Source: Actinomycetes bacterium
GTDB lineage: Bacteria; Actinomycetota; Thermoleophilia; Solirubrobacterales; Solirubrobacteraceae
DNA: 57,282 nt
Direction of reading: 5' to 3'
Assembly: GCA_021792455.1 (NCBI GenBank)
Contig: JAJYUP010000005.1
Span: 1-57,282 of the forward strand
In this document: positions 8,002 to 35,379 of the stretch, piece by piece
How the letters are laid out: each line of letters opens with the position of its first letter
Numbering within the stretch: the stretch's first letter is position 1
Notes under the pieces: generated by a model
Database searches by the model: none
What the model was told of the DNA's origin: nothing
Seen by the model: only the letters and a program-made list of their open reading frames with translations
Translations under genes and position numbers: made by a program

Positions 8002-8042
8002 TTGATCGCCTGGTCGTCTATTCTATACCGATCGGTCGGTAT
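7997..8042 (+). promoter_or_regulatory. Promoter plus 18-bp operator for the TMADH-like gene
   Basis: TTGACT (7997-8002) and TATTCT (8019-8024) are separated by 16 bp. The 18-bp imperfect palindrome ATACCGATCGGTCGGTAT (8025-8042) follows directly, covering the expected transcription start. A repressor bound there would block initiation. The palindrome is of a type typical of TetR-family operators and contains the 13-mer GATCRGTCGRTAY shared with four other regions of the window. Confidence 0.65.
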
Positions 8043-8104
8043 GACACGTCGGCCAGTCGGCCGGCGTGAGCCATTCAAGCCACGCGCGCAGGGAGGAGCA
8101 GCTG

Positions 8105-10240
8105 ATGAGCCGAGATCCCAGACACGACATCCTCTTCGAGCCGGTCCGGCTCGGTTCGAAGACGATGCCAAACCGCTTCTACCAAGCCCCCCACTGCACG
8201 AGCTTCGGGGTCGAGCTGCCAGGGGCGCAGGCGTACCACAGGGCTGTGAAGGCCGAGGGGGGATGGGGTGCGGTGAACACCGAGTTCTGCTCGGTGCATC
8301 CATCCTCCGACTCCCGTCCGCTCGTCTCTGCACGTCTTTGGGACGAAGATGACGTCCGCCGCCTCTCGGCGATGACGGAGCTCGCTCACGAGCAGGGCGC
8401 TCTTGCCGGCGTGGAGCTGTGGCACGGCGGGTGCGTGGCCGGGAACCTCGAGACGCGCCTGCCCGCCCGCAGCGTCAGCCAGCTGACCGACGAGAGCCTG
8501 TACTCCACGAGCTGCTACGAGCTCGACAAGGCTGGAATCCGAGAGGTGCAGGGTTACTACGTGGAAGCGGCGAAGCGGGCGCGCTCCGCGGGCTTCGACA
8601 TCATCAACATCGAGGGTGCGGAGTGCGGCGCGATCACCCAGCACTTCCTGATGGCGAAGTTCAACCATCGCACCGACGAGTACGGCGGCAGCTTCGAGAA
8701 CCGGGCCCGCTTTTGGATCGAGACGATCGACCGCGTGCGTGAGGCGGTCGGCGACGATCTCGCGATCACTGCGCGGCTGTGCGTGGACACGCTCAACGAC
8801 AGCCCGCTTGGCATCAGGGCAGCTGAGGAGGGCTACGGGTTCATTGCGCTCGCCGACCATCTCGTCGACTTTTGGGATCTTCAAGCCGGCGGTTGGGTGG
8901 CCGCCGAATGGGCGGGAGATGACGCGGTCGCCTCACGGTTCGCGGGGGAGTTCAGCCACCGCGAGTACATCGCCGCCGCACGCACGGCCACTCGCAAGCC
9001 GGTGACGGCGGTGGGCCGATTCACGAGCCCCGACACGATGGCACAGGCGATCCGCTCGGGGGTGATCGACATCATCGGGGCAGCGAGGCCGACGATCGCC
9101 GATCCGTTCCTTCCCCGAAAGATCGAAGAAGGACGCTACGAGGAGATTCGGGAGTGCATCGGGTGCAACATCTGCGCGGCCCGCTTCCCGCTGGGCGTGC
9201 AGATCATCTGCACCCAGAATCCGACCGTGGGAGAGGAGTACCGTCGCGGCTGGCATCCCGAGCGTCTGCCACCTGCACGGGAGCCCGACAAGGGCGTGCT
9301 CGTGATCGGAGCGGGTCCCGCCGGGATGGAGTGCGCGATGATCCTCGGCAAGCGGGGCATGGACAAAGTCCATCTCGTCGACGAGCGTTCGACTCTCGGC
9401 GGAAGGCTCCGCGAAGTCGCCGCCTATCCGCACCTCGCCGAGTGGGCGCGGGTGATCGACTATCGGCATGTCCAGCTGAGCAAGCTGTCCGGGGTCGAGG
9501 TGATCCTCAAGCGCAGGCTCGCAGTCGAGGAGGTGCTCGACTACGGGGCGCAGATCGTGGTCGTCGCGACGGGCGCACGGTGGCGATCTGACGGCTTCAA
9601 CGGCCCGACCCAGACGCCGATTCCCGGCGCCGGGCAGCGGTTCGTGCATACGCCCGAGCAGGTGCTGGCGGCACGTGGCGAGATCGAGGGAGAGCGAGTC
9701 CTCGTCTACGACACCGATGGCTATTTCACCGCGGTGGCGATGGCGCAGATGCTCAGGCGTGCAGGCAAGCAGGTCACCGTTGTGACGCCCTTTGCCAACT
9801 TCGCCCAATACATGTTCCTCACGGGGGAGGCCTTCCGGGTGAACCGCGAACTGCGCGCCGAAGGCGTCGAGATCCAGCCGGCCTGCATCCTCTCCTCGAT
9901 CGAGGAGGGCGGGCACCTGACAGGCCACGGAATCTGGTCGCCGCAGCCCCTTCGCTGGCATGCCGATGCGGTCGTGCTCGTCACGCAGCGGGAGCCCTGT
10001 GACGAGCTCTACCGTGCGCTGATCGCTGATCCTGAGCGACTTCGCCAGGAGAGCATCGAGGCGGTCTACAGGATCGGCGACTGCGTCAGTCCGCGACTGA
10101 TTGCGGACTGTGTGTTCGACGGGCACCGGCTGGCCCGGGAGATAGACGACGAGGACCCCTCGAGGCCGCTGCCGTACGTGCGCGAGGTGCCGTCGGCTCC
10201 GTCGGTGCTGCCGCGAGTCGGCGCAATGGGCCAGCTGTGA
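8105..10240 (+). CDS. Trimethylamine dehydrogenase-like iron-sulfur flavoprotein
   Basis: This 711-residue protein is colinear with trimethylamine/dimethylamine dehydrogenase: an N-terminal FMN TIM barrel of the Old Yellow Enzyme family, a 4Fe-4S site, then an FAD/ADP-binding module. The start (RDPRHDILFEPVRLG, NRFYQAPHC) is very close to the classic enzyme and keeps Cys31, equivalent to the Cys that covalently binds FMN. The cluster Cys are 351, 354, 357 and 369, followed by CTQNPTVGEEYRRGWHPE. The nucleotide motif is VLVIGAGPAGMECAMIL. Active-site positions differ: the bowl Tyr and one Trp are Phe (61, 361), and the Tyr/His pair is Glu in IEGAECG. I infer oxidative N-demethylation or deamination of another amine. 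GGAGGAG precedes the ATG. A cupin gene follows. Confidence 0.88.
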   Translation: MSRDPRHDILFEPVRLGSKTMPNRFYQAPHCTSFGVELPGAQAYHRAVKAEGGWGAVNTEFCSVHPSSDSRPLVSARLWDEDDVRRLSAMTELAHEQGALAGVELWHGGCVAGNLETRLPARSVSQLTDESLYSTSCYELDKAGIREVQGYYVEAAKRARSAGFDIINIEGAECGAITQHFLMAKFNHRTDEYGGSFENRARFWIETIDRVREAVGDDLAITARLCVDTLNDSPLGIRAAEEGYGFIALADHLVDFWDLQAGGWVAAEWAGDDAVASRFAGEFSHREYIAAARTATRKPVTAVGRFTSPDTMAQAIRSGVIDIIGAARPTIADPFLPRKIEEGRYEEIRECIGCNICAARFPLGVQIICTQNPTVGEEYRRGWHPERLPPAREPDKGVLVIGAGPAGMECAMILGKRGMDKVHLVDERSTLGGRLREVAAYPHLAEWARVIDYRHVQLSKLSGVEVILKRRLAVEEVLDYGAQIVVVATGARWRSDGFNGPTQTPIPGAGQRFVHTPEQVLAARGEIEGERVLVYDTDGYFTAVAMAQMLRRAGKQVTVVTPFANFAQYMFLTGEAFRVNRELRAEGVEIQPACILSSIEEGGHLTGHGIWSPQPLRWHADAVVLVTQREPCDELYRALIADPERLRQESIEAVYRIGDCVSPRLIADCVFDGHRLAREIDDEDPSRPLPYVREVPSAPSVLPRVGAMGQL

Positions 10241-10390
10241 GGGCGCTTCGCCACGCTGACGCATGTCCGGCGAGCGAGGGCGGAGGGGAAGCGTGATCGA
10301 CCATCAGAGCGGGCCGAAGAGAGACGGGAACAACGCCAACGAAGACCAACGTCTGCGCCCAGTGTGACGCAGCCGAGAGAGGAGCAGCTC

Positions 10391-10777
10391 ATGTCCACAA
10401 CCGAGACGACACCGCTCAAGCAGCACGTGTCCGATGCGCCAGTCGAGCCTGTGCCGATCCCCGAGCAGGATGTGATCGCAGGATCGCCCCGGTCGGCGAT
10501 GACGATCCTCTGGCGCTCGCACGACGGCAGGCTTTACAACGGCGTCTGGCACTGCACGCCGGGCATCTTCATGCTCACGCACCCCGCAGAGACGATCTGC
10601 GTGGTGGAGGGTCGCGTCACGATCACTCCGCAGGGCGGCGATCCCCTCGAGCTCGGGCCAGGCGATCTCGCGTTCATTCCGGAGGGGACCGTCGCCCGCT
10701 GGGAGGTGCACGAGACGATCAAGAAGGCCTTTCACTCCCACGACTCGACTGGAACGATGCTTGGTCCGCTGGGATGA
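10391..10777 (+). CDS. Cupin-domain protein (Cupin_3, EutQ/ureidoglycine-type)
   Basis: This 128-residue protein is a single small beta-barrel. The segment GRLYNGVWHCTPGIFMLTHPAETICVVEGRVTITPQGGDPLELGPGDLAFIPEGTVARWEV matches the Cupin_3 layout, with the GDLAFIPEG turn typical of the family. It lacks the full set of metal-binding His, so binding rather than catalysis is possible. The ATG has GAGGAG about 7 nt upstream. It lies 150 nt after the TMADH-like gene on the same strand and probably belongs to the same transcript; its role in that pathway is unknown. Confidence 0.8.
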   Translation: MSTTETTPLKQHVSDAPVEPVPIPEQDVIAGSPRSAMTILWRSHDGRLYNGVWHCTPGIFMLTHPAETICVVEGRVTITPQGGDPLELGPGDLAFIPEGTVARWEVHETIKKAFHSHDSTGTMLGPLG

Positions 10778-10967: not shown

Positions 10968-10980
10968 GGAAAGCGGCGGC

Positions 10981-11580
10981 TCAGCCGGTGGGTGCGGGCG
11001 CGTCCCGGTGGCGCGGATACTCATGCACCGAGACGAGTCGCACGTGACCTTCGAGCGCCTTGTAGGAATGGGGCCGGTCGGCGCGGAAGCTTATGAGGTC
11101 ACCCGGATGAAGCGTCTCTGCGAATACGTCGGTGCGGATCTCAACTGTGCCTTGAGCGACCACGATGTGCTCGAACAGCCCAGCGAAGTGACCATCCGAG
11201 CGCCTGATCGCCCCTTCCTGAAGCATCAGCGTGTAGATCTCGATCGCGCCACCGCCGCTCCGGGTCAGCATGTGTCGCACGATGAGTCCGCCCTGGCCCT
11301 TGCCGGCGCGGTCGATTGCCACGATCGCACCGTCGTCGTCGCGGACAACCGTGAGCTCCGCGTCGGTCGGCTCGTCGTGGAAGAGGCTTGCGAACGGGAC
11401 GTTGAGCTCGGACGCCAACGCCCATATCGTGTCGATCGAGGGGTTGGCGCGGCCGCGCTCGATCAGCGAGACCGTCGACTTGGCCACGCCGGCACGCTCG
11501 GCGAGCGCAGAGATCGTGAGCCCGCGCGTCAGGCGCCAACGGCGCAGATTGCGAGCTATCGGCTTGCGCGGCGTTTCCAT
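10981..11580 (-). CDS. XRE-family regulator with C-terminal cupin sensor
   Basis: This 199-residue protein has an HTH at about residues 10-65 (NLRRWRLTRGLTISALAERA, VAKSTVSLIERGRANPSIDTI). A Cupin_2 domain follows at about residues 105-190 (LQEGAIRRSDGHFAGLFEHIVVAQGTVEIRTDVFAETLHPGDLISFRADRPHSYKA). This architecture is that of small-molecule-responsive regulators controlling amine, amino-acid or polyamine catabolism, such as PuuR-like proteins. It diverges from the aminotransferase-RidA-isomerase operon across a 92-bp AT-richer gap, so that operon and its own gene are the likely targets. The ATG start is not preceded by a strong ribosome-binding site. Confidence 0.85.
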   Translation of the reverse strand: METPRKPIARNLRRWRLTRGLTISALAERAGVAKSTVSLIERGRANPSIDTIWALASELNVPFASLFHDEPTDAELTVVRDDDGAIVAIDRAGKGQGGLIVRHMLTRSGGGAIEIYTLMLQEGAIRRSDGHFAGLFEHIVVAQGTVEIRTDVFAETLHPGDLISFRADRPHSYKALEGHVRLVSVHEYPRHRDAPAPTG

Positions 11581-14283: not shown

Positions 14284-15804
14284 TCAGGCAAGCCCCGTCC
14301 AGACCGTCTTGGTCTCCAGGTAGGCCTCGAGGCCCTCGCGGCCGTGCTCGCGGCCGACGCCCGATGCCTTGATGCCGCCAAAGGGCGCGGCGGGGTCGCT
14401 CAGGCCCCAGCGGTTGACGTAGACGGTGCCCGCGTGCAGCGAGGCAGCCAACCGGTGTGCGGTCCTCAGATCGTTCGTCCAGATTCCCGCGGCCAGCCCG
14501 TAGGCGCCTGCATTGGCCCGTTCGACAGCCTCCTCGAGGCTCTCGTACGGAGTTGCGACGAGCACGGGCCCGAAGATCTCCTCTCGCACGATCGTCAGCT
14601 CGTCCGAGGTGGTGCTGAAGATCGTCGGCGCGACGTAGTAGCCCCCGCTGTGCTCCAGGGCACGTGTCCCTCCTGTCACGAGCTCCGCCCCGGCGCTCCG
14701 TCCCTCTTCTATGTAGGAGAGCACACGCTCGAGCTGTTGGGCAGAGATCAGCGGTCCGAGCTGCGTGTGCGGGTCGAGCCCTGGGCCGAGCCTGCTGGCG
14801 GTTGCCCGCTCGCGCAGCGCCTCCAGGACATCGTCGTAGCGCTCGGCTGGCACGAGCAGCCGCGAACCGGCGTTGCAGGCCTGGCCGGAGTTGTAGTAGA
14901 CGGCTTGAAAGGCGCCCTTCACGGCGGCGTCGACGTCGGCATCGGGCGCGATGATCGCCGCCGACTTGCCTCCGAGCTCGAGGGTGACCCGCTTCAGCGA
15001 GCGGCCTGCCTTCATCCCAATCTCCCGTCCAACCGCGGTCGATCCCGTGAAGGCGATCTTGTCGACACCAGGATGGTCGACGAGCGCCGCGCCGGTGGCT
15101 CTGTCGCCGCTGAGCACGTTGAGCACGCCAGGCGGGATGCCGACCTCGAGCGCGAGCTCGCCGAGCCGCAGTGCGGTGAGTGGCGTCTGCTCCGCAGGCT
15201 TGAGTACGAGCGTGCATCCGCACGCCAGCGCTGGTGCGACCTTCCAGACGGCCATGAGCAGCGGGAAGTTCCAGGGCACGATCTGAGCGCAGACTCCGAC
15301 TGGTTCATGGCGCGTGTAGCAGTGCACCTCAGCCTGCGAGACAGGGAGCACGGAGCCCTCCAGCTTCGTGGGCCAGCCGGCGAAATAGCGCAGGTGCTCG
15401 ATGGCGAGGGTGACGTCGACCGCAAGCGCGAGCTTCACGGGCTTGCCGTTGTCGAGCGCCTCGATTTCGGCGAGCTCGGAGGCGTGCGCTTCCACGGCAT
15501 CCGCGAGTGCTGAGATCAGCCGAGCACGGCGCGCCGGGGGCATCGCGGCCCACGACGGCGACCGCAGGGCCACGCGGGCCGCACTGACAGCTCGCTCTGC
15601 ATCCTCCTCCCCGCCATTCGACACCGTGGCGATCGGCTGAGCTGTGGCCGGATCGACGATCGTGAGCACCCTGCCATCAGCGGCCGGCACGCGCTCACCG
15701 TCGATGAGCAGGCGATGCACGTCGCTGCTCTGCATCCAGGAGCGCGCCGCGGCCCCAAGCGCGTCCAGCGGGCTGCCTGCCGCTGTTGCCGAGGACTCGC
15801 TCAT
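14284..15804 (-). CDS. NAD(P)-dependent aldehyde dehydrogenase
   Basis: This 506-residue enzyme oxidises an aldehyde to its acid. Family landmarks are present in order: PWNFPLLMAVWKVAPALACG, LKPAEQTPLTALRL, FTGSTAVGREIG (cofactor loop), LELGGKSAAII (general-base Glu), NSGQACNAGSRLLV (nucleophilic Cys), EEIFGPVL and GGIKASGVGREHG. Overall it resembles the betaine-aldehyde / phenylacetaldehyde / aminoaldehyde group. The ATG at 15804 is chosen because the longer in-frame extension is just translated 19-bp tandem repeat. An operator-like palindrome sits 18 nt upstream of the ATG, so this gene probably has its own regulated promoter although it follows the HyuA2-HyuB2-EamA genes on the same strand. 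Confidence 0.9.
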   Translation of the reverse strand: MSESSATAAGSPLDALGAAARSWMQSSDVHRLLIDGERVPAADGRVLTIVDPATAQPIATVSNGGEEDAERAVSAARVALRSPSWAAMPPARRARLISALADAVEAHASELAEIEALDNGKPVKLALAVDVTLAIEHLRYFAGWPTKLEGSVLPVSQAEVHCYTRHEPVGVCAQIVPWNFPLLMAVWKVAPALACGCTLVLKPAEQTPLTALRLGELALEVGIPPGVLNVLSGDRATGAALVDHPGVDKIAFTGSTAVGREIGMKAGRSLKRVTLELGGKSAAIIAPDADVDAAVKGAFQAVYYNSGQACNAGSRLLVPAERYDDVLEALRERATASRLGPGLDPHTQLGPLISAQQLERVLSYIEEGRSAGAELVTGGTRALEHSGGYYVAPTIFSTTSDELTIVREEIFGPVLVATPYESLEEAVERANAGAYGLAAGIWTNDLRTAHRLAASLHAGTVYVNRWGLSDPAAPFGGIKASGVGREHGREGLEAYLETKTVWTGLA

Positions 15805-15822: not shown

Positions 15823-15846
15823 ATCACGATCAGTCGATATCCTATC
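15823..15846 (-). promoter_or_regulatory. Operator and -10 upstream of aldehyde dehydrogenase
   Basis: The 18-mer ATCACGATCAGTCGATAT (15823-15840, plus strand) carries the shared 13-mer GATCAGTCGATAT and a degraded left half. On the minus strand a TAGGAT -10 box overlaps its distal end, so a bound regulator would cover the -10 and start site. The -35 region runs into the tandem repeat and is not clear. Confidence 0.55.
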
Positions 15847-16011: not shown

Positions 16012-16022
16012 GGCAAGGTCGC

Positions 16023-17060
16023 TCAGGGCGTGGCGAGCGGATCGTTTCCCGTTGCGCTGCGGTCAGCCCACTGCTTGACGAGGACCGCCGCGATCACGAC
16101 GCCGCCGCCGGCGAGCGTCGTCGCCGCCGGCCGTTCCGCGGTGCCGAGCCATGCCCAGAGCGAGCCGAGAACCGGCTCGAGCAGCACTATCAGGCCCATG
16201 CTCGCGGCGGACAGCATCCTCGCGGCACGCGTGAACAGTATGAGGCCGACGCCCTGCTGTCCCACTCCCAGCAGTGCGAGCCACAGCAGATCGATGCTCG
16301 TGATCTGGTCGGGATGAATGAAGGGCAGCCCACCGAGAACGAGGATCGCCTCAGCCAGGCAGGTCGCCGGCGCCATGGAGATCCGCCGGTGGCGGCGCGC
16401 CACCACGATGACGATCGCGAAAGCGGTCGGCGAGAGTGCGGCCATGCCGTCGCCCAGCAGTCCTCCGCCACCGGGCCCGGCCATCAGGAGGACTCCAACG
16501 GCTGCGAGTGAGATTGCGAGCCAGCCGCTCAGCGTCAGGTGCTCGCCGAGCAGCAGGAGCGCGAGCAGACCGGCGACGAGTGGGGTGAGCGCCTGGAAGA
16601 CGAGCGCGTGCGCGACGCTCGTGTGGTTGAGCGCGATGATGAAGCTCCCCGACGCGGTGGCGAGCCCGACGGCGACGAGGAGCCCAGCAGGGCTTGCGAG
16701 CGAGCGCACAGCGGCCGGTGCGCGACTGTCCTGGGAGGCGGCGCTCAGCAGCAGCAGGGCGAAGAGCGCGAAAAGCGCTCGGCCGACGAGCTGGTCGCCT
16801 GCGCCGGCTGAGACCTGCCGTTGGAGTATGCCGGCGGTCGACCAGCAGAGAACGGCCGCGAGCGCATAGATCTGTCCCCGCAGGCGCGATGGTCGCGCCG
16901 GGGGCACCGTGGGGGGCCCCACCGTGACGGCCTGCTTGCTGACGGACTGCCCGGCGCTCGTGCGGCTGGTTGCCGCTTGCGCATGCGCGCCCCGCGGCGT
17001 CTGATGAGCGCCGGTCTGCGCCCGCGCAGATGTGCGAGCGCCGCGCGAGGAGCGACTCAA
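16023..17060 (-). CDS. EamA/DMT-family transporter
   Basis: This 345-residue integral membrane protein has about ten hydrophobic segments in two EamA halves, beginning with QIYALAAVLCWSTAGILQRQV. The first half ends in FQALTPLVAGLLALLLLGEHLTLSGWLAISLAAVGVLLM; the second ends in LIVLLEPVLGSLWAWLGTAERPAATTLAGGGVVIAAVLV. These 'l.Pv.a.l.a...lgE..t..q..G..li..Gv.l' ends are diagnostic of drug/metabolite exporters. The first 60 residues are a polar Arg/Ser/Ala-rich extension. The start is uncertain: a TTG overlaps the HyuB2 stop (TTGA), and GTG codons further in are possible. As the last gene of the TetR-HyuA2-HyuB2 unit, it may export a pathway metabolite. Confidence 0.82.
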   Translation of the reverse strand: MSRSSRGARTSARAQTGAHQTPRGAHAQAATSRTSAGQSVSKQAVTVGPPTVPPARPSRLRGQIYALAAVLCWSTAGILQRQVSAGAGDQLVGRALFALFALLLLSAASQDSRAPAAVRSLASPAGLLVAVGLATASGSFIIALNHTSVAHALVFQALTPLVAGLLALLLLGEHLTLSGWLAISLAAVGVLLMAGPGGGGLLGDGMAALSPTAFAIVIVVARRHRRISMAPATCLAEAILVLGGLPFIHPDQITSIDLLWLALLGVGQQGVGLILFTRAARMLSAASMGLIVLLEPVLGSLWAWLGTAERPAATTLAGGGVVIAAVLVKQWADRSATGNDPLATP

Positions 17061-18934: not shown

Positions 18935-18935
18935 C

Positions 18936-22504: not shown

Positions 22505-22533
22505 TTGACAGGAAACCGATCAGTCGATATCGT
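22505..22533 (+). promoter_or_regulatory. Strong promoter with embedded operator, HyuA1 operon
   Basis: A perfect -35 TTGACA (22505-22510) and TATCGT (22528-22533) have ideal 17-bp spacing. The 18-mer AAACCGATCAGTCGATAT (22513-22530) lies between them and contains the shared 13-mer GATCAGTCGATAT. A protein bound there would compete directly with RNA polymerase. The promoter points towards HyuA1, about 450 bp downstream. Confidence 0.7.
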
Positions 22534-22579: not shown

Positions 22580-22965
22580 ATGAGAGATTCGCTGTGCGAC
22601 AGCCGCCGGTGGCACCTTCATCGACCCAGAGAGCGGGGAGGAGATCTCGGGTGCGAATCGCGCCCTTCGCCTTGGCGACCTGGCCTTCATCGACCCAGAG
22701 GGCGAGGAGGAGATCTCGGTCTTCAGGCGCCCAGCGACCGCGGCAGATCGCCTCAGCTGGGTGCTCGCCGCCGTCCGCCATGCAGCCCGCCGTTGTCCGG
22801 CTGGCAGCCGATCAGAGGCTCGATCTGATGCTCTCGACCGACTCCCACGTGTGCCCGGCGGCTGAGCGCACATCATCGGGCGGCGGTGGCGAGCTCGAGG
22901 TGCGCCGCCCTGAAATCGCCGTGGCGCTCGACGGTCGCCTGGCGCGGAAAGACCCGGGGCGTTGA
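22580..22965 (+). pseudogene. Possible broken small coding sequence upstream of HyuA1
   Basis: An ATG at 22580 has GGAGG 4 nt upstream but opens an Arg-rich frame that looks non-coding. A different frame from 22584 reads GGTFIDPESGEEISGANRAL...LAFIDPEGEEEISVF and onwards to a stop near 22865, with protein-like composition but no start codon. A third frame gives a 61-residue peptide from ATG 22780. The repeated 'FIDPE.GEEIS' comes from a 69-bp (23-codon) spaced DNA repeat at about 22617 and 22686. A frameshifted or decayed gene is possible; I do not recognise its family. Confidence 0.3.
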
Positions 22966-22968
22966 TGA

Positions 22969-22995
22969 TATTTTTCCAAACCGCATGATCGGTTT
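22969..22995 (+). promoter_or_regulatory. -10 and inverted repeat at the HyuA1 start
   Basis: TATTTT (22969-22974) ends 10 nt before the HyuA1 ATG at 22985, and no Shine-Dalgarno sequence is visible. The perfect 6-bp inverted repeat AAACCG-catgat-CGGTTT (22978-22995) spans the start codon itself. It could be an operator or a hairpin that hides the start. Confidence 0.45.
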
Positions 22996-27069: not shown

Positions 27070-28361
27070 CAGCGAAGCGAAGCGAGACGGCGGTGCTCGA
27101 CGATGGCTCAGCCACCGCGATCGAACACGCTTACACAAAGATGACGCCAACCTCCGCCGCGATGATGCGGCGGGCATCTCAGAGCATGACGCGTGGGATC
27201 ACTCGCAGCCTCAGCTGGTTCGCGCCCTACCCGGTCGTCTTTGAGCGTGGAGAGGAATCTGCGCTCTACGATCTGGATGGAAACCGCTACATAGACCTGT
27301 TCAGCAATGGCTTGAGCCTCATCCACGGTCACGCATATCGGCCCATCGACGAGGCTTTGCGCACCGCCCTCTCGCGCGGCACCGCGTGGCCAGGCGCATC
27401 GGATGCCCAGGTGGAGTTCGCCGAGCTCTTGTGTGAGCGCGTTCCCGGCGTCGAGCAGGTGCGTTTCACCAACACGGGGACCGAGGCCACGATGCTTGCG
27501 GTGAAACTCGCCCGCCATCTCACCGGCAGACAGCTGGTCGTCAAGGGCGTACACGCCTATCACGGCTCATTCGAAGACCTCGAGGCGGGGCTGCTGGGTA
27601 GGGGCGCGATCGCAGGGCGCGTCGCGCTCGCCTCCTTCGGCGATCTCGACTCCTGGTCTGAGGAGCTCGACAGACACGCCGGCGAGGTCGCCGCGGTGAT
27701 CGTCGAGCCGATTCAGTACACGGGAGTGGTCACGACTCCTCCCGACGGATTCCTGCGCGAGCTTCAGCGGCTGACACGCGACGCGGGCGCGCTGTTCATC
27801 CTCGACGACTGCCTGATGTTCAGGCTCGCCGAGGGCGGCTCGGCGGAGCGCTTCGGCCTTGCGCCAGCCGACATCACCTGTCTTGGCAAGTGGATTGGCG
27901 GCGGCCTGCCTGTCGGCGTGATCGGTGCGCGGCGCGAGCTGATGAAGTGCTTCGACCCCGACTCGGCACACCCCCTCTACCACGGAGGCTCCTTCAACGG
28001 CAACCTCCTCGGCTCCGTCGCTGGCCGGATCGCGGTTCGCGACTTCACTGCGGAGGCGATCCAGCGGATCGACAGCTGCGGCGATCGGCTGCGAGCGGCG
28101 CTCCACACGGCTGCCGCCGCCGCCGGCATCTCACTGTACACGCCTGGTCTCGGCTCTGTCTTCGGCCTGTACGTGCTCGACGGCGCGGATGGGGCGATCG
28201 ACTGGCGGGCCACCGCTCATCTGCATCTGGCTGCGGTCACCCACGGGGTCTATTACGGCAGTGGGGGCGAGTTCGGCCTGAACACCGCGCTCGGTGAGGA
28301 GGATCTCGAGCGGGCGATCGGTGGGCTGGAAGGCGCGATCAGAGACTTGGCGAGCCGCTGA
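27066..28361 (+). CDS. PLP aminotransferase, glutamate-1-semialdehyde aminomutase-like (paralog 2)
   Basis: This 431-residue paralog of the enzyme at 11673-13007 shares NGLSLIHGHA, FTNTGTEATMLAVKLARHLTG and FILDDCLMFRLAEGGSAERFGLAP. It also shares the PLP-lysine segment LGKWIGGGLPVGVIG (Lys275) and LYHGGSFNGNLLGSVAG. Like paralog 1 it has LDDCLM.RL where classical enzymes have DEVxTGFR, marking one subfamily. It overlaps HyuB1 by ATGA and is 1 nt from the enoyl-CoA hydratase start. Its place after a HyuAB pair suggests that it transaminates, or moves the amino group of, an amino acid released by ring opening. That is an inference. Confidence 0.86.
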   Translation: MTAKRSETAVLDDGSATAIEHAYTKMTPTSAAMMRRASQSMTRGITRSLSWFAPYPVVFERGEESALYDLDGNRYIDLFSNGLSLIHGHAYRPIDEALRTALSRGTAWPGASDAQVEFAELLCERVPGVEQVRFTNTGTEATMLAVKLARHLTGRQLVVKGVHAYHGSFEDLEAGLLGRGAIAGRVALASFGDLDSWSEELDRHAGEVAAVIVEPIQYTGVVTTPPDGFLRELQRLTRDAGALFILDDCLMFRLAEGGSAERFGLAPADITCLGKWIGGGLPVGVIGARRELMKCFDPDSAHPLYHGGSFNGNLLGSVAGRIAVRDFTAEAIQRIDSCGDRLRAALHTAAAAAGISLYTPGLGSVFGLYVLDGADGAIDWRATAHLHLAAVTHGVYYGSGGEFGLNTALGEEDLERAIGGLEGAIRDLASR

Positions 28362-29290: not shown

Positions 29291-29740
29291 TTGACAGTTC
29301 ACATCGAGGACATCGAGGTCGGCCTGAGGTTCGAGACGAGCAGGCGGACGGTCACTGAGGCCGATGTCGTCGCGTTCGCGGGAGTCTCCGGTGATTTCAA
29401 CCCGCTGCACACCGACGAGATATTCGCTTCGACGGAGAGTCGCTTCGGCAGGAGGATCGCACATGGTCCGCTCGTGCTGTCGATCAGCTACGGCCTGCGG
29501 AGCGTGAGGGACGACTGGAAGATCCTCGCGCTCGTCGAGTGCCAACGGCGCTTCCGCGCGCCGGTGTTCCCAGGTGACACCGTGTGGGGCGAGTATGAGG
29601 TGATCGAGGTCCGTGACAGTCGCTCACAGCCGCACGCGGGGTTCGTCTCGCTGCAGGTGTACATCCGCAGCGACCGGAGCGAGGTCGTACAGGAAGGACG
29701 CGACGTGCTGATGGTCGCGGCGGCGCGCCGGCGCGACTAG
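29291..29740 (+). CDS. MaoC-like hotdog dehydratase
   Basis: This 149-residue single-hotdog protein has the MaoC/(R)-hydratase 2 motif: VSGDFNPLHTDEIFA (Asp and His of the catalytic dyad), RIAHGPLVLSISYGL and FRAPVFPGDTVWGEYEVIEVRDSRSQPHAGFVSLQV. It probably hydrates or dehydrates a CoA thioester. The TTG start follows GGAGA by about 8 nt; the 133-bp gap from the hydratase holds no promoter I trust, so it is probably the last gene of the HyuA1 operon. Its stop TAG overlaps the stop of the convergent ABC ATPase within the sequence CTAG. Confidence 0.85.
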   Translation: MTVHIEDIEVGLRFETSRRTVTEADVVAFAGVSGDFNPLHTDEIFASTESRFGRRIAHGPLVLSISYGLRSVRDDWKILALVECQRRFRAPVFPGDTVWGEYEVIEVRDSRSQPHAGFVSLQVYIRSDRSEVVQEGRDVLMVAAARRRD

Positions 29741-30888
29741 GCCGGTTGGGTGCTGCTGCGTCGGGGCTCGGTGTCGAGAGCGGGTTGGGGGGCCACTGCG
29801 GTGGTCGGACGGTGCGCGAAAGCCTCTGTCGTCTCTGTTCGCGCGGGGAGGGGCACCTCCCCCGGAAAGTGACAGGCAACCCAATGCTCTGAGCCGAGCT
29901 CACGCAGCGGCGGCCTCTCCTGCCTGCAGATCTCGCGGCCCCGGCCGACCGGGCAGCGCGGCTCGAAAGGGCAACCAGGTGGCCGCTCGGTCAGCGAAGC
30001 GACTTCGCCGACCAGCTGTGGCCTCGCGGCACGCCGCGTGCGGCCGCCGAGCGCCGGGACCGGAACGGCGGACAGCAGAGAGACGGCATATGGGTGCAGC
30101 GCGGCACGGAAGAGCGTCTCGCGCCCGGCCAGCTCGACGACCTCGCCGAGGTACAGGACGGCCACACGATCACAGAAGTACTCGGCGACGGCGAGATCGT
30201 GGGTGATGAAGACGTATGTGAGACCGTGCTCCACCTGCAGTCGCCGCAGCAGGTTCAGCACCTGGGCCTGAACGGAGACGTCGAGCGCTGAAATCGGCTC
30301 ATCGAGAACTGCGACGTCGGGCCGCAGCACGAACGCTCGGGCGATCCCGATCCTCTGGCGCTGCCCGCCCGAAAACGCGTGTGGCGGCCGCTGCGCCTGC
30401 TCCGCCGTCAGCCCGACCTCCGCGAGGACCCCAAGCGCTGCCTGCCGGCGCTGCTCACGATCGCCGAGGCGGTGCACGAGCAGCGGCTCTTCGACGATCG
30501 CGCGTGCGCTCATCCGGGGATCGAGCGAGGCGAACGGATCCTGGAAGACGAACTGCAGGCGTCGCCGCACCGCCCGCAGCGCACCGCGATCGAGGGTTGC
30601 GAGGTCGACGCCGTCGAACACCACGCGTCCGTCACTCGGCTCGAGCAGTCGGAGCAGGCATCGCGCGAGAGTCGACTTGCCGCAGCCCGACTCGCCGACC
30701 AGTCCAAAGGTCTCGCCACGCCGCACACTGAGCGAGACGTCGTCGAGCACGGTCACCTCGAGCGCTCTGCCCAGTCGGCGCTCGCTGCGCACTGCGAAGC
30801 GCTTGCAGAGGTGCTGAGCCTCCAGGATGCTCTGCTCAGCCGGAGCGGGAGCGGCCTTTGGAGCGTGCTGTTGGTGCTGCTCAGTCAT
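29737..30888 (-). CDS. dppF: Peptide/nickel-type ABC transporter ATPase (DppF/OppF)
   Basis: This 383-residue ATPase has Walker A GLVGESGCGKSTLARCL, the Q-loop FVFQDPFASLDPRM, signature HAFSGGQRQRIGIARAF, Walker B VAVLDEPISALD and switch His in FITHDLAVAEY. The C-terminal oligopeptide-transporter domain contains the Cys pattern CPFEPRCPVGRGREIC...CH found in OppF/DppF proteins. The tail of about 35 residues is low complexity. It is the last gene of dppC-dppB-dppD-dppF and overlaps dppD by ATGA. The substrate could be a dipeptide, but this family also imports opines, betaines and other small nitrogen compounds. Confidence 0.92.
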   Translation of the reverse strand: MTEQHQQHAPKAAPAPAEQSILEAQHLCKRFAVRSERRLGRALEVTVLDDVSLSVRRGETFGLVGESGCGKSTLARCLLRLLEPSDGRVVFDGVDLATLDRGALRAVRRRLQFVFQDPFASLDPRMSARAIVEEPLLVHRLGDREQRRQAALGVLAEVGLTAEQAQRPPHAFSGGQRQRIGIARAFVLRPDVAVLDEPISALDVSVQAQVLNLLRRLQVEHGLTYVFITHDLAVAEYFCDRVAVLYLGEVVELAGRETLFRAALHPYAVSLLSAVPVPALGGRTRRAARPQLVGEVASLTERPPGCPFEPRCPVGRGREICRQERPPLRELGSEHWVACHFPGEVPLPARTETTEAFAHRPTTAVAPQPALDTEPRRSSTQPA

Positions 30889-31994
30889 CGGGACCCACGA
30901 GCCGCCCGCTCACGCGCGAAATGGCACTCGACGATCGCGCTGCCCGATGGTCCCTCGACGAGCTCGGGAACCGGCGTCTGCTCGTGACAGACAGCGAGCT
31001 CGCGCCCAACTGAGCACCGCGGGGCGAAGGTGCAGCCTCCAGGCAGAGCGGAGAGGTCGGGAGGGAACCCCGGGATGGCAGGCAGCGGCCCCTCGGCGAG
31101 CCGCTCAGGGTTCGGCACGCACCGCAGCAGCGCTTCGCTGTAGGGGTGGGTCGCACCGAGGAAGATGTGCTCGCAGGACGAGCTCTCCACGAGCCGTCCG
31201 GCATACATGACGGAGACCGAGTCACAGAACTCCGAGACGATCCCGAGATTGTGGGTGATGAGGATGACCGCCGCCCGATGCTCGTCGACCAGCCGATCGA
31301 GCAGACCCAGAACCTGGGCCTGGGTCGTCACGTCCAGCGCCGTGGTCGGCTCGTCTGCGATCAGCACGCTCGGGTTGTTCGCAATCGCCATCGCGATCGC
31401 GACGCGCTGGCGCATCCCCCCGGAGTACTGGTGGGGGTAGTCGTCGAGACGACGCTCGGCCTGGGGGATGTCCACCTCGCGCAGGAGCTCGGCGGCGCGC
31501 CTGCGCAGCGCGGAGCGACGCAGCTGGGGGTTGTGCACGGCGATCGCCTCGTGCAGCTGCGCGCCGATCGTCTTCACAGGGTCGAGGGCGCTCATCGGGT
31601 CCTGCAGAATCAACGCGATCTCCCTTCCCCTGATCGAGCTCAGCTGGCGCTCGGAGAGGCCGACGATGTTGCGTCCGTTCAGCAGCACTTCGCCGCCGCC
31701 GACGCGGCCCGGGGGCTCGATCAGGCCGAGGATGGAGAGCGCGAGCGCGGACTTGCCTGAGCCGGACTCCCCGACGACCCCGAGCCGCTCTGTTGGACGC
31801 AGGTCGAAGCTGACCTCGCGCACCGCCTGGACGGTCGCGTGCCCCAGCTCGTAGACGGTGCGCAGGTTTCGCACCGACAGCGCGAATGGCCCGTCCGCGT
31901 CGTCGGTCGCCGCCTGCGGCGCACGCACGCCGGCGGGCGCCCCGCGATCCTCCCGCAGGCCGCGCATGCGCTCGAGGACGCTCAGCGCACCCAT
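30885..31994 (-). CDS. dppD: Peptide/nickel-type ABC transporter ATPase (DppD/OppD)
   Basis: This 369-residue ATPase has Walker A GVVGESGSGKSALALSIL, Q-loop LILQDPMSALDPVKTIG, signature HQYSGGMRQRVAIAMAIAN, Walker B VLIADEPTTALD and LITHNLGIVSEFCD. The SGGM signature and the end PGGCTFAPRCSVGRELAVC are typical of the OppD/DppD half of the heterodimer. The N-terminal 35 residues are a variable extension. The start lies 2 nt after the dppB stop and the end overlaps dppF, so the four genes form one tight operon. Confidence 0.92.
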   Translation of the reverse strand: MGALSVLERMRGLREDRGAPAGVRAPQAATDDADGPFALSVRNLRTVYELGHATVQAVREVSFDLRPTERLGVVGESGSGKSALALSILGLIEPPGRVGGGEVLLNGRNIVGLSERQLSSIRGREIALILQDPMSALDPVKTIGAQLHEAIAVHNPQLRRSALRRRAAELLREVDIPQAERRLDDYPHQYSGGMRQRVAIAMAIANNPSVLIADEPTTALDVTTQAQVLGLLDRLVDEHRAAVILITHNLGIVSEFCDSVSVMYAGRLVESSSCEHIFLGATHPYSEALLRCVPNPERLAEGPLPAIPGFPPDLSALPGGCTFAPRCSVGRELAVCHEQTPVPELVEGPSGSAIVECHFARERAARGSR

Positions 31995-31996
31995 CG

Positions 31997-33022
31997 CTAT
32001 GCGGTCACCACCGACCTCACGCGCACGCGCGGGTCGATCACGGCATAGAGGAGGTCGACGCCGAGGTTGACGAGCACGAACATCACGGCACTCAGGAGGA
32101 TGAAGGTCTGGACGATCGAGAAGTCCTGCTTCAGGATCGCTTCATAGACGAGCGAGCCGACGCCAGGCCAGTTGAACACCTTTTCGACCAGGACGCTTCC
32201 TGCGAGGAATTCGCCGAGAACCAGTCCGCCCGCGGTGAGAGTCGGCAGAGAGGCGTTCGGCAGAGCGTGGCGGCGGAAGGCGGTCCAGCGGCGCAGACCC
32301 TTGCCGCGGACGACTGTGATGAAGGGCTCGCGCGAGACCTCGAGCAGGTTGGCGCGGAGCAGGCGCACCAGAAACGCGAAGTTGGCCATGCCGAGCGCCA
32401 CGCCCGGCAGGACGAGGTGTTCGACCGCTTCCAAGAACTTGCCCGGTTCGCCCGCGATCAGCGCATCGATCGTGTAGAGGTGCGTGACCGTTGCCGGCGG
32501 GGTGACCTGTGCGCCCAGTCGGCCTTCGGGGCCGGGGAGGATCTTCAAGGTGGAGAAGAACACGATCAGAAGGATCAGCGAGACGAAGAACGGGGGGGTT
32601 CCGAAGCCGATGTAGGCGATCGCCCGCACGATCCGGTCGGCGATCGGCCGTCGGCGATATGTGACCAGCAGCGCCAGCACGATAGAGGCGAGCATCGTGA
32701 TCAGGAAAGCGAACAGTGCGAGCTCGATCGTGGCCGGCAGCCGTTCGCCTATCAGCGTACGCACCGGTGCGCCATCGCTGTAAGAGTATCCCCACTGGCC
32801 TTGGAAGAACTGTGTGATGTAGCGCCAGTATTGAACATAGATGGGCCTGTCGAGCCCGAGCTGCCTGTACAGCGAGTGCACCGTGGAGGGCGGTGCAAGC
32901 GGCCCGAGGATCAGTCGTGCGGGGTTTCCGGGCAGAACGCGCATGATCACGAAGGCGATGATCGATGCGCCGAAGATCGCGCCGAGGGACCCGAGCAGCC
33001 GGCGCGCGATCACCCCTGTCAT
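31997..33022 (-). CDS. dppB: ABC transporter permease (DppB)
   Basis: This 341-residue protein has six hydrophobic segments and the DppB/OppB N-terminus: IARRLLGSLGAIFGASIIAFVIMRVLPGNPARLILG, then STVHSLYRQLGLDRPIYVQYWRYI. The cytoplasmic EAA loop is VSREPFITVVRGKGLRRWTAFRRHALPNASLPTLT, and the end FNWPGVGSLVYEAILKQDFSIVQTFILLSAVMFVLVNLGVDLLYAVIDPRVR is diagnostic. A stretch of roughly 30 residues (GPEGRLGAQVTPPATVTHLYTIDALI) gives a periplasmic loop longer than I expect. It pairs with dppC, 13 nt upstream. Confidence 0.92.
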   Translation of the reverse strand: MTGVIARRLLGSLGAIFGASIIAFVIMRVLPGNPARLILGPLAPPSTVHSLYRQLGLDRPIYVQYWRYITQFFQGQWGYSYSDGAPVRTLIGERLPATIELALFAFLITMLASIVLALLVTYRRRPIADRIVRAIAYIGFGTPPFFVSLILLIVFFSTLKILPGPEGRLGAQVTPPATVTHLYTIDALIAGEPGKFLEAVEHLVLPGVALGMANFAFLVRLLRANLLEVSREPFITVVRGKGLRRWTAFRRHALPNASLPTLTAGGLVLGEFLAGSVLVEKVFNWPGVGSLVYEAILKQDFSIVQTFILLSAVMFVLVNLGVDLLYAVIDPRVRVRSVVTA

Positions 33023-33035
33023 CGTCTGTCCCTCA

Positions 33036-33956
33036 TCAGCTGCGCAGGCCTGAGCTGCGCGGGTCGAGCACGTCGCGCAGCCGATCGGAGAGCATGCTCG
33101 CGGCGGTCACGGTGACGAGCAGCGCTACGCCGGGAAAGACGCTCACCCACCACTGCCCGGTCAACGAGTAGGTGAGACCATCGGTGATCATCGCGCCCCA
33201 CTCAGGGGTCGGTATCTGGGCTCCGAGTCCGAGAAAGCTGAGCCCGGCGAGCAGCAGCACGGCGTAGGCGAAGCCGGCGGCGATCTGAATGGCGAGCGTC
33301 GGCATCACGTGCGGAACGACGTGGCGGGCGATGATCCGCCGTCGACTCGCCCCGATCGCGTGGGCAGCCTCGATGAAGGGGAGCGAACGGATCCTGATCG
33401 CCTCGCTGCGCACCAGCCGCGCGTACCAGGGTATGAGAACGAGCGTTGCGCCGATGGCAGCCGTCTTCAGGCCGACGCCCAGCCCAACCGTCACCGCCAT
33501 CGCGAGGATGAGCGGCGGGAAGGCGAGGATTGCATCCATGACGCGCATGAGCACGGCGTCGCTTGCGCCCGCGGTCGTACCGGCGAGCAGCCCGATCACT
33601 CCGCCGATCACCGCCCCGATCACGGCGATGAGCGTGCCGTCCAGCAGGGAGATGCGCGCCCCTTCGGCCACGCGGGCAAAGATGTCCCGCCCGAGCTGGT
33701 CGGTCCCCATCGGATGCGCCAGCGACGGCGCCTTCAGAGAGGCGAGCAGGTTCTGCGTGTCGGGACCGACGCCCCATGCCAGGGGGGCGATGATCGCGAA
33801 CAGGACGATCGCGACCAGCACGAGCGTCGGCACCGCCAGCCGGCGGTCGCCCAGCACCGCTGCCAGCGCTCGGCGCACGCGGCTGCCGTCGCCCAGCGGC
33901 GGCACCTCTCTGATGGCCCCGTCAGGCGGTGCGAACGTCAGCAGGCCGCTGCTCAT
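33036..33956 (-). CDS. dppC: ABC transporter permease (DppC)
   Basis: This 306-residue permease has the DppC features: a first membrane segment (VPTLVLVAIVLFAIIAPLAWG), the signature HPMGTDQLGRDIFARVAEGARISLLDGTLIAVIGAVIGGVIGLLAG, the EAA loop FIEAAHAIGASRRRIIARHVVPHVMPTL, and the end VSVFPGVALLVTVTAASMLSDRLRDVLDPR. It is the first gene of the minus-strand transporter operon; the ATG has a GGGAGGG-type ribosome-binding site. The binding-protein gene lies 1.5 kb away on the other strand beyond a beta-keto acid cleavage enzyme, so the transporter is transcribed from two divergent units. Confidence 0.92.
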   Translation of the reverse strand: MSSGLLTFAPPDGAIREVPPLGDGSRVRRALAAVLGDRRLAVPTLVLVAIVLFAIIAPLAWGVGPDTQNLLASLKAPSLAHPMGTDQLGRDIFARVAEGARISLLDGTLIAVIGAVIGGVIGLLAGTTAGASDAVLMRVMDAILAFPPLILAMAVTVGLGVGLKTAAIGATLVLIPWYARLVRSEAIRIRSLPFIEAAHAIGASRRRIIARHVVPHVMPTLAIQIAAGFAYAVLLLAGLSFLGLGAQIPTPEWGAMITDGLTYSLTGQWWVSVFPGVALLVTVTAASMLSDRLRDVLDPRSSGLRS

Positions 33957-34125: not shown

Positions 34126-34950
34126 ATGAGCGATGAGGCGATTCTCACCTGTGCCGTGGTAGGGGGTATCTTGACAGGCAACCCGAATCAGCCGAGGAGA
34201 AGGGACGAGGTGATCACATCGGCGATCGAGGCGGCTCGCGCCGGCGCAAGCGTGCTCCACATTCACGCGCGCAGCCCGACGGGCGAGATCACTCAAGACC
34301 CTGAGGACTTCCTCGCGATCAAGGAGGGCATCCGTTCGGCGGTCGATGACATCGTCCTCAACTTCACGACCGGGGGGCGCCTCGGCATGCCCGCTGAGGA
34401 GCGGCGCCGGTCGCTCGAGGCGGGTCCCGAACTCGCTTCGTTGAACTGCGGCAGCATCAACTTCGGGCCGGGCGAGGACATCTTTCTCAACCCAAAGAGA
34501 CTGATCGGCGAACTCGCCGCCGAGATGGACAGGCGCGGGGTGGTCCGCGAGTATGAGTGCTTCGACGTCGGTATGGCGATCACCGCCCGCGACCTCGCGC
34601 AGTCTGCGCCGAGCGCTCCGGGGCTCATGCACATGGTCCTCGGCGTGATCGGTGGTGCGCCGCCGAGCGTCGACCTCATCACGACCTTCGCCCGCATCGT
34701 GCCTGAGGGGCTGCCCTGGATGGTGACCGCGATCGGCCGGCAGAACTTCCCGATGATGGCTGTCACGCTCGCGCTCGGCGGCCACATCCGCACGGGGCTC
34801 GAGGACGTCGTCTACATCGCGCCGCGGGAGTATGCCGCCTCCAATGCTCAACTCGTTGCGAGGGCGCGCTCGTTGTGCGAGGCGGTAGGCCGTCCAGTCG
34901 CCTCCCCGGCACGGGCACGGGAGATCCTGGGGATCGCCTGCTCTGCTTGA
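34126..34950 (+). CDS. Beta-keto acid cleavage enzyme (BKACE, DUF849)
   Basis: This 274-residue TIM-barrel enzyme opens LTCAVVGGILTGNPNQP and carries ASVLHIHARSPTGEITQD with the His-x-His zinc ligands. LNFTTGGRLGMPAEER, SLNCGSINFG, ECFDVGM and HIRTGLEDVVYIAP (ligand Glu) complete the family pattern. BKACEs condense a beta-keto acid with acetyl-CoA to give acetoacetate and a new CoA ester; known substrates include 3-keto-5-aminohexanoate and dehydrocarnitine, so cationic nitrogenous substrates are common. Its place between the two halves of an ABC transporter suggests that it acts on the imported compound or a derivative. Acetoacetate could feed the acetoacetyl-CoA synthetase at 39 kb. Confidence 0.9.
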   Translation: MSDEAILTCAVVGGILTGNPNQPRRRDEVITSAIEAARAGASVLHIHARSPTGEITQDPEDFLAIKEGIRSAVDDIVLNFTTGGRLGMPAEERRRSLEAGPELASLNCGSINFGPGEDIFLNPKRLIGELAAEMDRRGVVREYECFDVGMAITARDLAQSAPSAPGLMHMVLGVIGGAPPSVDLITTFARIVPEGLPWMVTAIGRQNFPMMAVTLALGGHIRTGLEDVVYIAPREYAASNAQLVARARSLCEAVGRPVASPARAREILGIACSA

Positions 34951-35061
34951 GCGCATCGGCGTGGCCCTCGGCATGCGGGTGAGCTGCTGTGGGAGGTGGC
35001 GCATATCTGCATCAGCCGACTGAAGCGTCACGCGCCCGCGGGCACGGACCTCCGAGATCGC

Positions 35062-35089
35062 ATATCGATCAGTCGGTACGCAACGTACC
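35062..35089. promoter_or_regulatory. Upstream operator with adjoining palindrome
   Basis: ATATCGATCAGTCGGTAC (35062-35079) matches the shared 18-bp operator and contains GATCAGTCGGTAC. The perfect inverted repeat GGTACG-caa-CGTACC (35075-35089) overlaps its right end. No -10/-35 pair is evident here, so it may be an auxiliary site for the promoter 280 bp downstream. Confidence 0.55.
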
Positions 35090-35328
35090 AAGATGGTCAC
35101 CGTCTGTCAAGGAGGCGATCATCTGCCGAGATGAGGGCGCCCGCCTCCCGGCGGTGTGCTCCTGCGCCTGCACGACCCCCCTCGTCCTCCGAGCGGGGCT
35201 CTTCAGAGGGTGGGCCGCCTCGTGCTGGGATTGTGTCGCGCAGGCCCGCGTCTGGTGCTCTCTGCGTGCGCGGAATGGCTGCAGCAGGGCCGTTCGCGGC
35301 GGGATTCGCCGCGCGGTCCGCCGCGACC

Positions 35329-35379
35329 TTGACCAGTCGCCGCGAAACCTGTACTCTTCTTATACCGACTGATCGTCTT
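35329..35379 (+). promoter_or_regulatory. Promoter plus operator for the ABC binding protein
   Basis: TTGACC (35329-35334) and TACTCT (35352-35357) are separated by 17 bp. The operator ATACCGACTGATCGTCTT (35362-35379) follows and covers the expected start site; its minus strand contains GATCAGTCGGTAT. The arrangement is the same as at 7997-8042. Confidence 0.7.

What the first reader, a model, noticed from the sequence alone, without database searches (positions are those of the whole stretch)
8025..35379. A 13-mer operator shared by five promoter regions defines an undescribed catabolic regulon
GATCRGTCGRTAY occurs exactly at 8025-8042 (ATACCGATCGGTCGGTAT), 15823-15840, 22513-22530, 35062-35079 and 35362-35379 (minus strand), each inside an 18-bp imperfect palindrome AWACCGATCRGTCGRTAT. 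By base counting, this degenerate 13-mer should occur about 0.01 times in both strands of 57 kb at equal base frequencies. All five copies are between genes, and three overlap or abut TTGAC-16/17-TAnnnT promoters. They precede the TMADH-like enzyme, the aldehyde dehydrogenase, the HyuA1 operon and the ABC binding protein. Weaker relatives lie at 22135-22152, 22978-22995 and 41091-41108. The form is typical of TetR operators, and the BetI-like protein at 21168-21956 is the best local candidate. One inducer would switch on uptake and breakdown together.
Basis: partly seen in the sequence, partly recalled or inferred. Interest (0 to 1): 0.88.

Follow-up and report, generated by a model that had tools for sequence, protein, structure and literature searches.

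The report
TetR-type repressor's local catabolic regulon
A bacterium of the Solirubrobacteraceae carries a block of genes for taking up and breaking down an unidentified nitrogen compound, and the same short DNA switch, conserved in three sister species, sits at several of its promoters and most likely binds a repressor encoded in the block.

Summary
The 13-mer occurs 5 times in the window (0.01 expected) and 6 times in the 3.15-Mb genome. It is the core of an imperfect 18-bp dyad.

Orthologous clusters in three same-genus genomes (G002, G003, G021) carry the dyad upstream of orthologous genes: TMADH-like enzyme (4 of 4), a second aminotransferase (3 of 4), a two-operator interval before the ABC binding protein (3 of 3 testable), and the BetI-like TetR gene (3 of 3 cluster-bearing genomes with upstream sequence; two cluster-less genomes lack it). 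At the clearest promoters the operator follows the -10 or fills the -35/-10 spacer, as expected for repression.

The best candidate regulator is the BetI-like TetR at 21168-21956, probably autoregulated through the weaker 22135 site. The window's second TetR is essentially excluded. An XRE-cupin regulator is less likely and may have its own motif, ATATCGAAC. Binding itself is inferred.

Addition: the 35062 operator adjoins a conserved promoter-like sequence antisense to the BKACE gene and pointing toward oppCBDF.

An ordinary kind of system, apparently undescribed here, with unknown substrate and inducer.

The parts
8025..8042 (+). Operator O1, upstream of TMADH-like gene; abuts promoter-like TTGACT(7997-8002)-16-TATTCT(8019-8024)
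   Evidence: operator before the TMADH ortholog in G002, G003, G021
8105..10240 (+). TMADH-like flavoenzyme (Oxidored_FMN + Pyr_redox_2), likely ATG at 8105
15823..15840 (+). Operator O2, 18 bases upstream of the likely aldehyde dehydrogenase ATG (15804, minus strand)
   Evidence: seen in this genome only
14284..15804 (-). Aldehyde dehydrogenase (BADH/StyD-like, below those cut-offs)
22135..22152 (-). Operator O3 (weaker sequence), upstream of the TetR gene; probable autoregulatory site, counterpart in G002 and G003
21168..21956 (-). BetI-like TetR regulator (TetR_N + TetR_C_6), best candidate repressor
18936..21041 (-). HyuA2, hydantoinase A / CapA-like; downstream of TetR, possibly the same operon
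17057..19219 (-). HyuB2, hydantoinase B (ORF limits; true start unsure)
22513..22530 (+). Operator O4, filling the spacer between TTGACA (22505-22510) and TATCGT (22528-22533) upstream of hyuA1
   Evidence: counterparts in G002 and G021
22978..22995 (-). Weak relative with perfect outer dyad AAACCG-N6-CGGTTT near the hyuA1 start; possible second operator
   Evidence: no counterpart noted in relatives
22886..25117 (+). HyuA1, hydantoinase A / CapA-like (ORF limits; true start unsure)
24835..27069 (+). HyuB1, hydantoinase B / CapB-like (ORF limits)
26958..28361 (+). Class III aminotransferase AT3b; operator before its orthologs in G002, G003 and G021, only a degenerate trace at 27027 here
35062..35079 (+). 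Operator O5, next to a minus-strand promoter-like pair TTGACA(35110-35105)-17-TACGTT(35087-35082); similar pair in G002 and G021; antisense to BKACE, toward oppCBDF
35362..35379 (-). Operator O6, four bases after TTGACC(35329)-17-TACTCT upstream of the ABC binding protein
35460..37193 (+). ABC solute-binding protein (SBP_bac_5), lipoprotein-like N-terminus, likely ATG at 35460
34126..34950 (+). BKACE (beta-keto acid cleavage enzyme), divergent from oppC
29737..33956 (-). oppC-oppB-oppD-oppF ABC transporter genes
10981..11580 (-). XRE-cupin regulator (PuuR-like order of domains, below the PuuR cut-off): rival regulator, perhaps with its own motif
41091..41108 (-). Weak relative upstream of the acyl-CoA dehydrogenase/carboxylase operon; a similar weak site at the same place in G021 (L107:8458)

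Best explanation
The 18-bp dyad (about AWAYCGATCRGTCGRTAT, often flanked by GC) is the operator of the BetI-like TetR regulator at 21168-21956. A TetR dimer binds it at the promoters of the TMADH-like enzyme, hyuA1B1, the aldehyde dehydrogenase, the ABC binding protein, a divergent promoter pointing toward oppCBDF, and its own gene. It blocks RNA polymerase because the site lies just after the -10 or between -35 and -10. When the pathway's substrate or an intermediate binds, the repressor leaves, and uptake, first enzymes and repressor rise together. Shown by sequence: the motif, its near-confinement to the cluster, its conservation, its overlap with promoter-like sequences at about half of the sites, and conservation of TetR. 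Inferred: that this TetR is the binder, that it represses, and that there is one inducer. Substrate unknown; the enzymes (TMADH-like, two HyuAB-type ATP-dependent amidohydrolases, class III aminotransferases, ALDH, BKACE) suggest an N-methylated or cyclic amide/amine compound.
For: Motif 5 times in window, 6 in genome. Six of 24 same-genus genomes hold the TetR ortholog at E <= 1e-30. With AWAYCGATCRGTCGRTAT at up to 2 mismatches, the four with TetR and cluster (G000, G002, G003, G021) hold 24 distinct sites, 19 of them in cluster contigs; the two with TetR only (G011, G019) hold 4; the 18 without TetR hold 7, at most 1 each; the backward control gives 3 in all 24 (counted; the Y at position 4 was chosen after seeing the G002/G003 sites, G021 was unseen). 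TMADH and HyuA1 orthologs (E <= 1e-150) occur only in those four. Operators precede orthologous genes: TMADH 4 of 4; AT3b 3 of 4; hyuA1 directly 3 of 4 (in G003 the TetR/Rid operator precedes Rid-hyuA1); TetR in 3 of 3 cluster-bearing genomes with upstream DNA; binding protein, two sites in the same orientation, 3 of 3 testable. 12 of 21 sites have a -35/-10 pair with at least 8 of 12 consensus matches, against 5.9% of 4000 GC-matched positions. The HTH is nearly identical in six orthologs, the model is all-helical with TetR-family structures as matches, and the site is a dyad.
Against: No binding or expression data. G011 and G019 carry the TetR (64 and 71% identical, same HTH) but no recognisable operator beside it, so over all five orthologs with upstream DNA the count is 3 of 5; in G021 the TetR starts 34 bases from a contig end. 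The XRE-cupin regulator is also present in all four operator-bearing genomes. The TetR site lies about 180 bp before the TetR start and the hyuA1 operator over 350 bp before its ORF. Nine of 21 sites, among them all three TetR, all three AT3b and the ALDH site, have only 7 of 12 promoter matches, a level that 35% of controls reach; the reading direction of the three site-2 rows was chosen by me (without them 9 of 18 reach 8), two of the 12 are pairs in unexpected places, and the control does not correct for the AT-richness of the operator itself.
Confidence: 0.82

Rival explanations
1. The XRE-cupin regulator at 10981-11580 binds the operator, and the TetR controls something else.
For: It is present in all four operator-bearing genomes and conserved in the cluster.
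Against: It also occurs in G004 and G015 (82-83% complete drafts), which have no operator match at up to 2 mismatches. No operator was scored in its upstream gap in G000, G002, G003 or G021, while that gap carries a different word, ATATCGAAC, in 4 of 7 genomes (G002, G003, G004, G015; not exactly in G000, G019, G021). The dyad is typical of TetR rather than of PuuR-like proteins (recalled).
Confidence: 0.08
2. An unlinked regulator elsewhere in the genome binds the operator.
For: Regulators need not be linked; G009 has a similar dyad (AAACCGACCAGTCGGTAT) beside a different TetR, so related sites exist for other TetRs.
Against: The sites are nearly confined to the cluster and include the promoter of the linked TetR in three genomes.
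Confidence: 0.08
3. The second TetR (38462-39049, TetR_C_24, FadR-like below cut-off) is the regulator.
For: It is in the window, near the 41091 weak site.
Against: No ortholog at E <= 1e-25 in 23 of 24 genus genomes, including G002, G003 and G021, which carry the operators.
Confidence: 0.01
4. The sites are a dispersed repeat or a chance match, not an operator.
For: None beyond shortness.
Against: Flanks differ between copies; positions conserved before orthologous genes; 0.01 expected.
Confidence: 0.01

Closest known systems
TetR-family locally acting, autoregulated catabolic repressors (for example BetI; recalled)
   Same: Linked TetR with BetI-type C-terminal domain, dyad operators at promoters, own promoter included.
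   Different: BetI equivalog cut-off not reached (90.2 of 201.3 bits); no choline dehydrogenase among the 49 window ORFs scanned; operator unlike the BetI operator as I recall it; six operator words found in no paper of the held library.
Caprolactam cluster of Pseudomonas jessenii (PMC6061476; passages seen)
   Same: HyuAB/CapAB-type ATP-dependent lactam hydrolase, class III aminotransferase, aldehyde dehydrogenase, beta-oxidation-type enzymes.
   Different: CapA/CapB cut-offs not met (497 and 266 of 1000 bits; HyuA2 537); here also a TMADH-like enzyme, BKACE, an Opp-type importer, a second HyuAB pair and a linked TetR.
Trimethylamine dehydrogenase
   Same: Best solved relative of the 8105 protein (1djn, E 1.3e-193, 648 bits; histamine dehydrogenase 525 bits).
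   Different: Substrate not established; no other methylamine-pathway gene recognised among the ORFs scanned.

Membership tests
TetR family regulator | TetR_N HTH above Pfam cut-off | tested here: met
   45.6 bits, cut-off 24
TetR family regulator | All-helical fold with N-terminal HTH and C-terminal ligand domain | tested here: met
   10 helices, mean pLDDT 76.9, pTM 0.66, tail 199-255 below 50; the 50 Foldseek rows shown are TetR-family or transcriptional-regulator entries, some solved with choline (4kwa), TMAO (7acm) or an N,N-dimethyl compound (4nel, title cut)
BetI | NCBIfam BetI equivalog score above cut-off | tested here: not met
   TIGR03384 90.2 of 201.3 bits; NF001978 80.8 of 118
BetI | Linked choline-to-betaine genes | tested here: not met
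   ALDH resembles BADH but below cut-off (TIGR01804 516.7 of 668.6); no choline dehydrogenase among the 49 ORFs scanned
Autoregulated local TetR regulon | Shared dyad operator at several promoters, confined to the cluster and conserved | tested here: met
Autoregulated local TetR regulon | Operator at the regulator's own promoter | tested here: met
   22135, L040:17675, L043:7757; cluster-less G011 and G019 orthologs lack it
Autoregulated local TetR regulon | Direct binding and ligand-dependent release | not testable with these tools
   needs bench work
Caprolactamase CapAB | NCBIfam equivalog score above cut-off | tested here: not met
   HyuA1 497.4, HyuB1 266.2, HyuA2 537.4, each of 1000 bits; HyuB2 not scanned with NCBIfam

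The most novel reading that the evidence does not exclude
Two-layer logic: besides switching on the pathway, loss of TetR repression fires a conserved promoter (TTGACA-17-TAsGTT next to the 35062 operator) whose transcript runs antisense through the BKACE gene and on into oppCBDF, so one RNA would both lower an enzyme and express the importer (excludon-like), while a second regulator (XRE-cupin) reads ATATCGAAC at the opp, hyuA2 and XRE-cupin/aminotransferase promoters.
Probability: 0.3. Interest if true: 0.5.

Novelty: new member of a known kind. Interest (0 to 1): 0.36.

Why it matters
It gives a testable regulator-operator pair and a defined set of probably co-regulated genes for a Solirubrobacteraceae genus seen here only as draft genomes. 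The regulon boundary says which enzymes and which importer belong to one pathway, which narrows the search for the substrate. If binding is shown, the repressor could serve as a sensor for that compound.

Tried and rejected
TetR_C_24 protein as regulator: rejected, found in 1 of 24 genomes. XRE-cupin as binder: judged unlikely. The sixth exact genome match (C28) and the G019 match in the infB-rbfA gap: judged chance, because they lie in or beside housekeeping genes. C145:1799 overlaps a 562-aa ORF with no Pfam family: undecided. Operators beside TetR in G011 and G019: looked for with a matrix and a half-site dyad scan, none found. Rfam: no match in the window at gathering thresholds. Caprolactam, carnitine or hydantoin as substrate: not decidable, equivalog cut-offs not met. 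ATATCGAAC genome-wide: 0 to 9 per genome in 14 hand-picked genomes (7 with XRE-cupin, 39 matches; 7 without, 22 matches), so the word alone is not specific. The stricter sigma-70 consensus tool found no promoter at 33850-35500; the promoter-like pairs rest on my looser count. Literature: six operator words, 0 papers of the held library; the listings showed no description of this regulon (each shows only the best-ranked papers). One search used five window proteins in a wrong frame (HyuB2, HyuB1, AT3b, TetR24, AMP ligase); it was redone correctly, which the counts rest on.
Full report
What was claimed and what is there. The 13-mer GATCRGTCGRTAY is present at the five stated places; 0.01 are expected in shuffled sequence. 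The own genome has six exact matches in 3.15 Mb, five of them here (probability of at least 5 of 6 in this 1.8% of the genome 1.2e-8). With the 18-mer at up to 3 mismatches the genome has 10 distinct places, 8 in the window. Two of the five sites match the full 18-mer; the other three differ at two positions. The sixth exact match lies in an ORF with a tRNA (guanine-1) methyltransferase domain.

Where the window comes from. The own genome is an unnamed draft in 242 contigs, 83% complete.

Gene content. Pfam and NCBIfam scans (49 window ORFs by Pfam, 20 by NCBIfam) give a TMADH-like flavoenzyme, a 3-hydroxyacyl-CoA-dehydrogenase-like protein, a cupin, an XRE-cupin regulator, two class III aminotransferases, a Rid protein, a TIM-barrel isomerase, an aldehyde dehydrogenase, an EamA transporter, two hydantoinase A/B pairs, the BetI-like TetR, an enoyl-CoA hydratase, MaoC, oppCBDF, BKACE and a family 5 binding protein, followed by an MFS protein, a second TetR, an AMP ligase and an acyl-CoA dehydrogenase/carboxylase operon. 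The TMADH-like protein is closest in the PDB to trimethylamine dehydrogenase, hydantoinase A1 to entries named 5-oxoprolinase and N-methylhydantoinase, and AT3b to a class III aminotransferase and beta-phenylalanine aminotransferase. NCBIfam's caprolactamase models score best for HyuA1, HyuB1 and HyuA2 but far below cut-off, so the substrate is open.

Relatives. The TetR ortholog is found in 6 of 24 genomes of the genus at E <= 1e-30. Four of these (G000, G002, G003, G021) also hold the TMADH-like and HyuA1 genes at E <= 1e-150, and no other of the 24 does. In these four the operator recurs upstream of orthologous genes although gene order differs: before TMADH in 4 of 4; before AT3b in 3 of 4 (here only a degenerate trace at 27027); directly before hyuA1 in 3 of 4, with G003 carrying instead the TetR/Rid operator before Rid-hyuA1; before the TetR gene in 3 of 3 with upstream sequence; and as a pair in the same orientation between BKACE and the binding protein in 3 of 3 (one of the pair is weak in G021). 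G003 could not be tested for the last, since its contig starts inside oppD and no binding-protein match at E <= 1e-60 was found. G002 also has a site before an MFS gene. The aldehyde dehydrogenase site is seen only here.

Counts across the genus. With AWAYCGATCRGTCGRTAT at up to 2 mismatches, distinct places are 8 (G000), 8 (G002), 5 (G003) and 3 (G021), 24 in all, of which 6, 7, 3 and 3 (19) lie in cluster contigs. G011 has 3 and G019 has 1. The 18 genomes without TetR hold 7 in all, none more than one. The pattern read backwards gives 3 in 24 genomes. The pattern was widened by one letter after the G002 and G003 sites had been seen; the G021 sites were new. Against a simple story: G011 and G019 have the TetR but neither the cluster genes nor a recognisable operator at the TetR.

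Operator form and position. Over 21 sites in the four genomes the dyad is AWAYCGATCRGTCGRTAT with symmetric outer half-sites and a common GC on either side. Twelve of 21 sites have a -35/-10 pair with at least 8 of 12 consensus matches within reach, against 5.9% of 4000 GC-matched control positions; no resample of 5000 reached the observed mean. Limits: I chose the reading direction, for the three site-2 rows after seeing the promoter-like pair (without them 9 of 18); two of the 12 (G002 binding protein, G002 MFS) are pairs in unexpected places; the other nine sites have 7 of 12, which 35% of controls reach; and the operator's own AT-richness is not controlled. Clear layouts are TTGACT-16-TATTCT followed at once by the operator (TMADH), TTGACA with the operator filling the spacer (hyuA1), and TTGACC-17-TACTCT with the operator four bases later (binding protein). 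These are repressor positions.

Which regulator. The TetR has the motif at its own promoter in three genomes, a nearly invariant HTH among six orthologs and a TetR-like model. Among its Foldseek matches are a Saccharomonospora TetR solved with choline (4kwa) and with an N,N-dimethyl compound (4nel, title cut), and RcdA with TMAO (7acm); RcdA with Tris, FadR with stearoyl-CoA and others are there too, so this hints only weakly at an amine inducer. The second TetR of the window has no ortholog in 23 of 24 genomes. The XRE-cupin regulator is in 7 of 24, including G004 and G015, which have no operator match.

A second motif. The gap upstream of the XRE-cupin gene carries ATATCGAAC in G002, G003, G004 and G015, not exactly in G000, G019 or G021. 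The word AWATCGAAY occurs 9 times in the 25 loci I scanned (377 kb): XRE-cupin/aminotransferase or XRE-cupin/ADH gap 4, BKACE/oppC gap 3, upstream of hyuA2 2, elsewhere none; about 1.5 are expected. Seven of the nine are in the gaps from which I derived the word; only the two hyuA2 sites and the lack of others are independent. The loci were chosen for TetR, XRE-cupin or operator hits, so this is no blind sample, and in whole genomes the word occurs 0 to 9 times (14 genomes). I take it as a lead for the XRE-cupin protein's own site.

The antisense promoter. Two bases from the 35062 operator lies a minus-strand promoter-like pair, TTGACA-17-TACGTT. G002 and G021 have TTGACA-17-TAGGTT at the same distance from the operator, while the spacers differ. 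It points away from the binding protein, antisense to BKACE and on toward oppC. The stricter consensus scan did not list it. The BKACE-oppC gap has other conserved words, among them the second motif, so opp may also have its own promoter. Whether the long transcript exists is untested.

Literature. Passages of PMC6061476 (caprolactam pathway of P. jessenii) were seen; other papers only as search listings. Six operator words gave no paper in the held library. I therefore call this regulon apparently undescribed, within those searches.

Verdict. The finding is real and correctly interpreted in outline. It is a new example of a familiar kind of system: a linked, probably autoregulating TetR repressor controlling uptake and breakdown genes. 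The substrate, inducer and direct binding remain to be shown.

Noticed in passing
window 33984-33992; L040:7346 and 16281; L041:6031; L043:16555; L077:2163; L081:1404; L106:4934; L107:2825: Second word AWATCGAAY upstream of XRE-cupin, oppC and hyuA2 genes, perhaps the XRE-cupin regulator's site.
   Followed up: partly
window 35082-35110 (minus strand): Conserved operator-linked promoter-like pair antisense to BKACE and pointing toward oppCBDF (not listed by the stricter scan).
   Followed up: partly
L072:1501 (G002:C3), L085:6436 (G003:C209), L086:6208 (G011:C111): Relatives of the operator upstream of an IclR-family gene; the three proteins are 81-94% identical and all three genomes carry the TetR. 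Whether TetR-less genomes have the gene without the site is untested.
   Followed up: partly
L089:6287 (G009:C5:186286): Near-perfect dyad AAACCGACCAGTCGGTAT beside a different TetR and a divergent DUF4267 gene.
   Followed up: partly
window 41091-41108 and L107:8458: Weak dyad between the AMP-ligase and acyl-CoA dehydrogenase genes, similar in G021, where the window's neighbouring second TetR was not found; regulator unknown.
   Followed up: partly
window 15850-16012: 8.6 copies of a 19-bp tandem repeat just upstream of the aldehyde dehydrogenase operator.
   Followed up: no
window 7948-8001: 21-bp tandem repeat carrying TTGAC, so the -35 region of the TMADH promoter is duplicated.
   Followed up: no
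window 3947-4525: Nucleotidyltransferase-like protein (DUF6036/AbiEii) next to the cluster.
   Followed up: no
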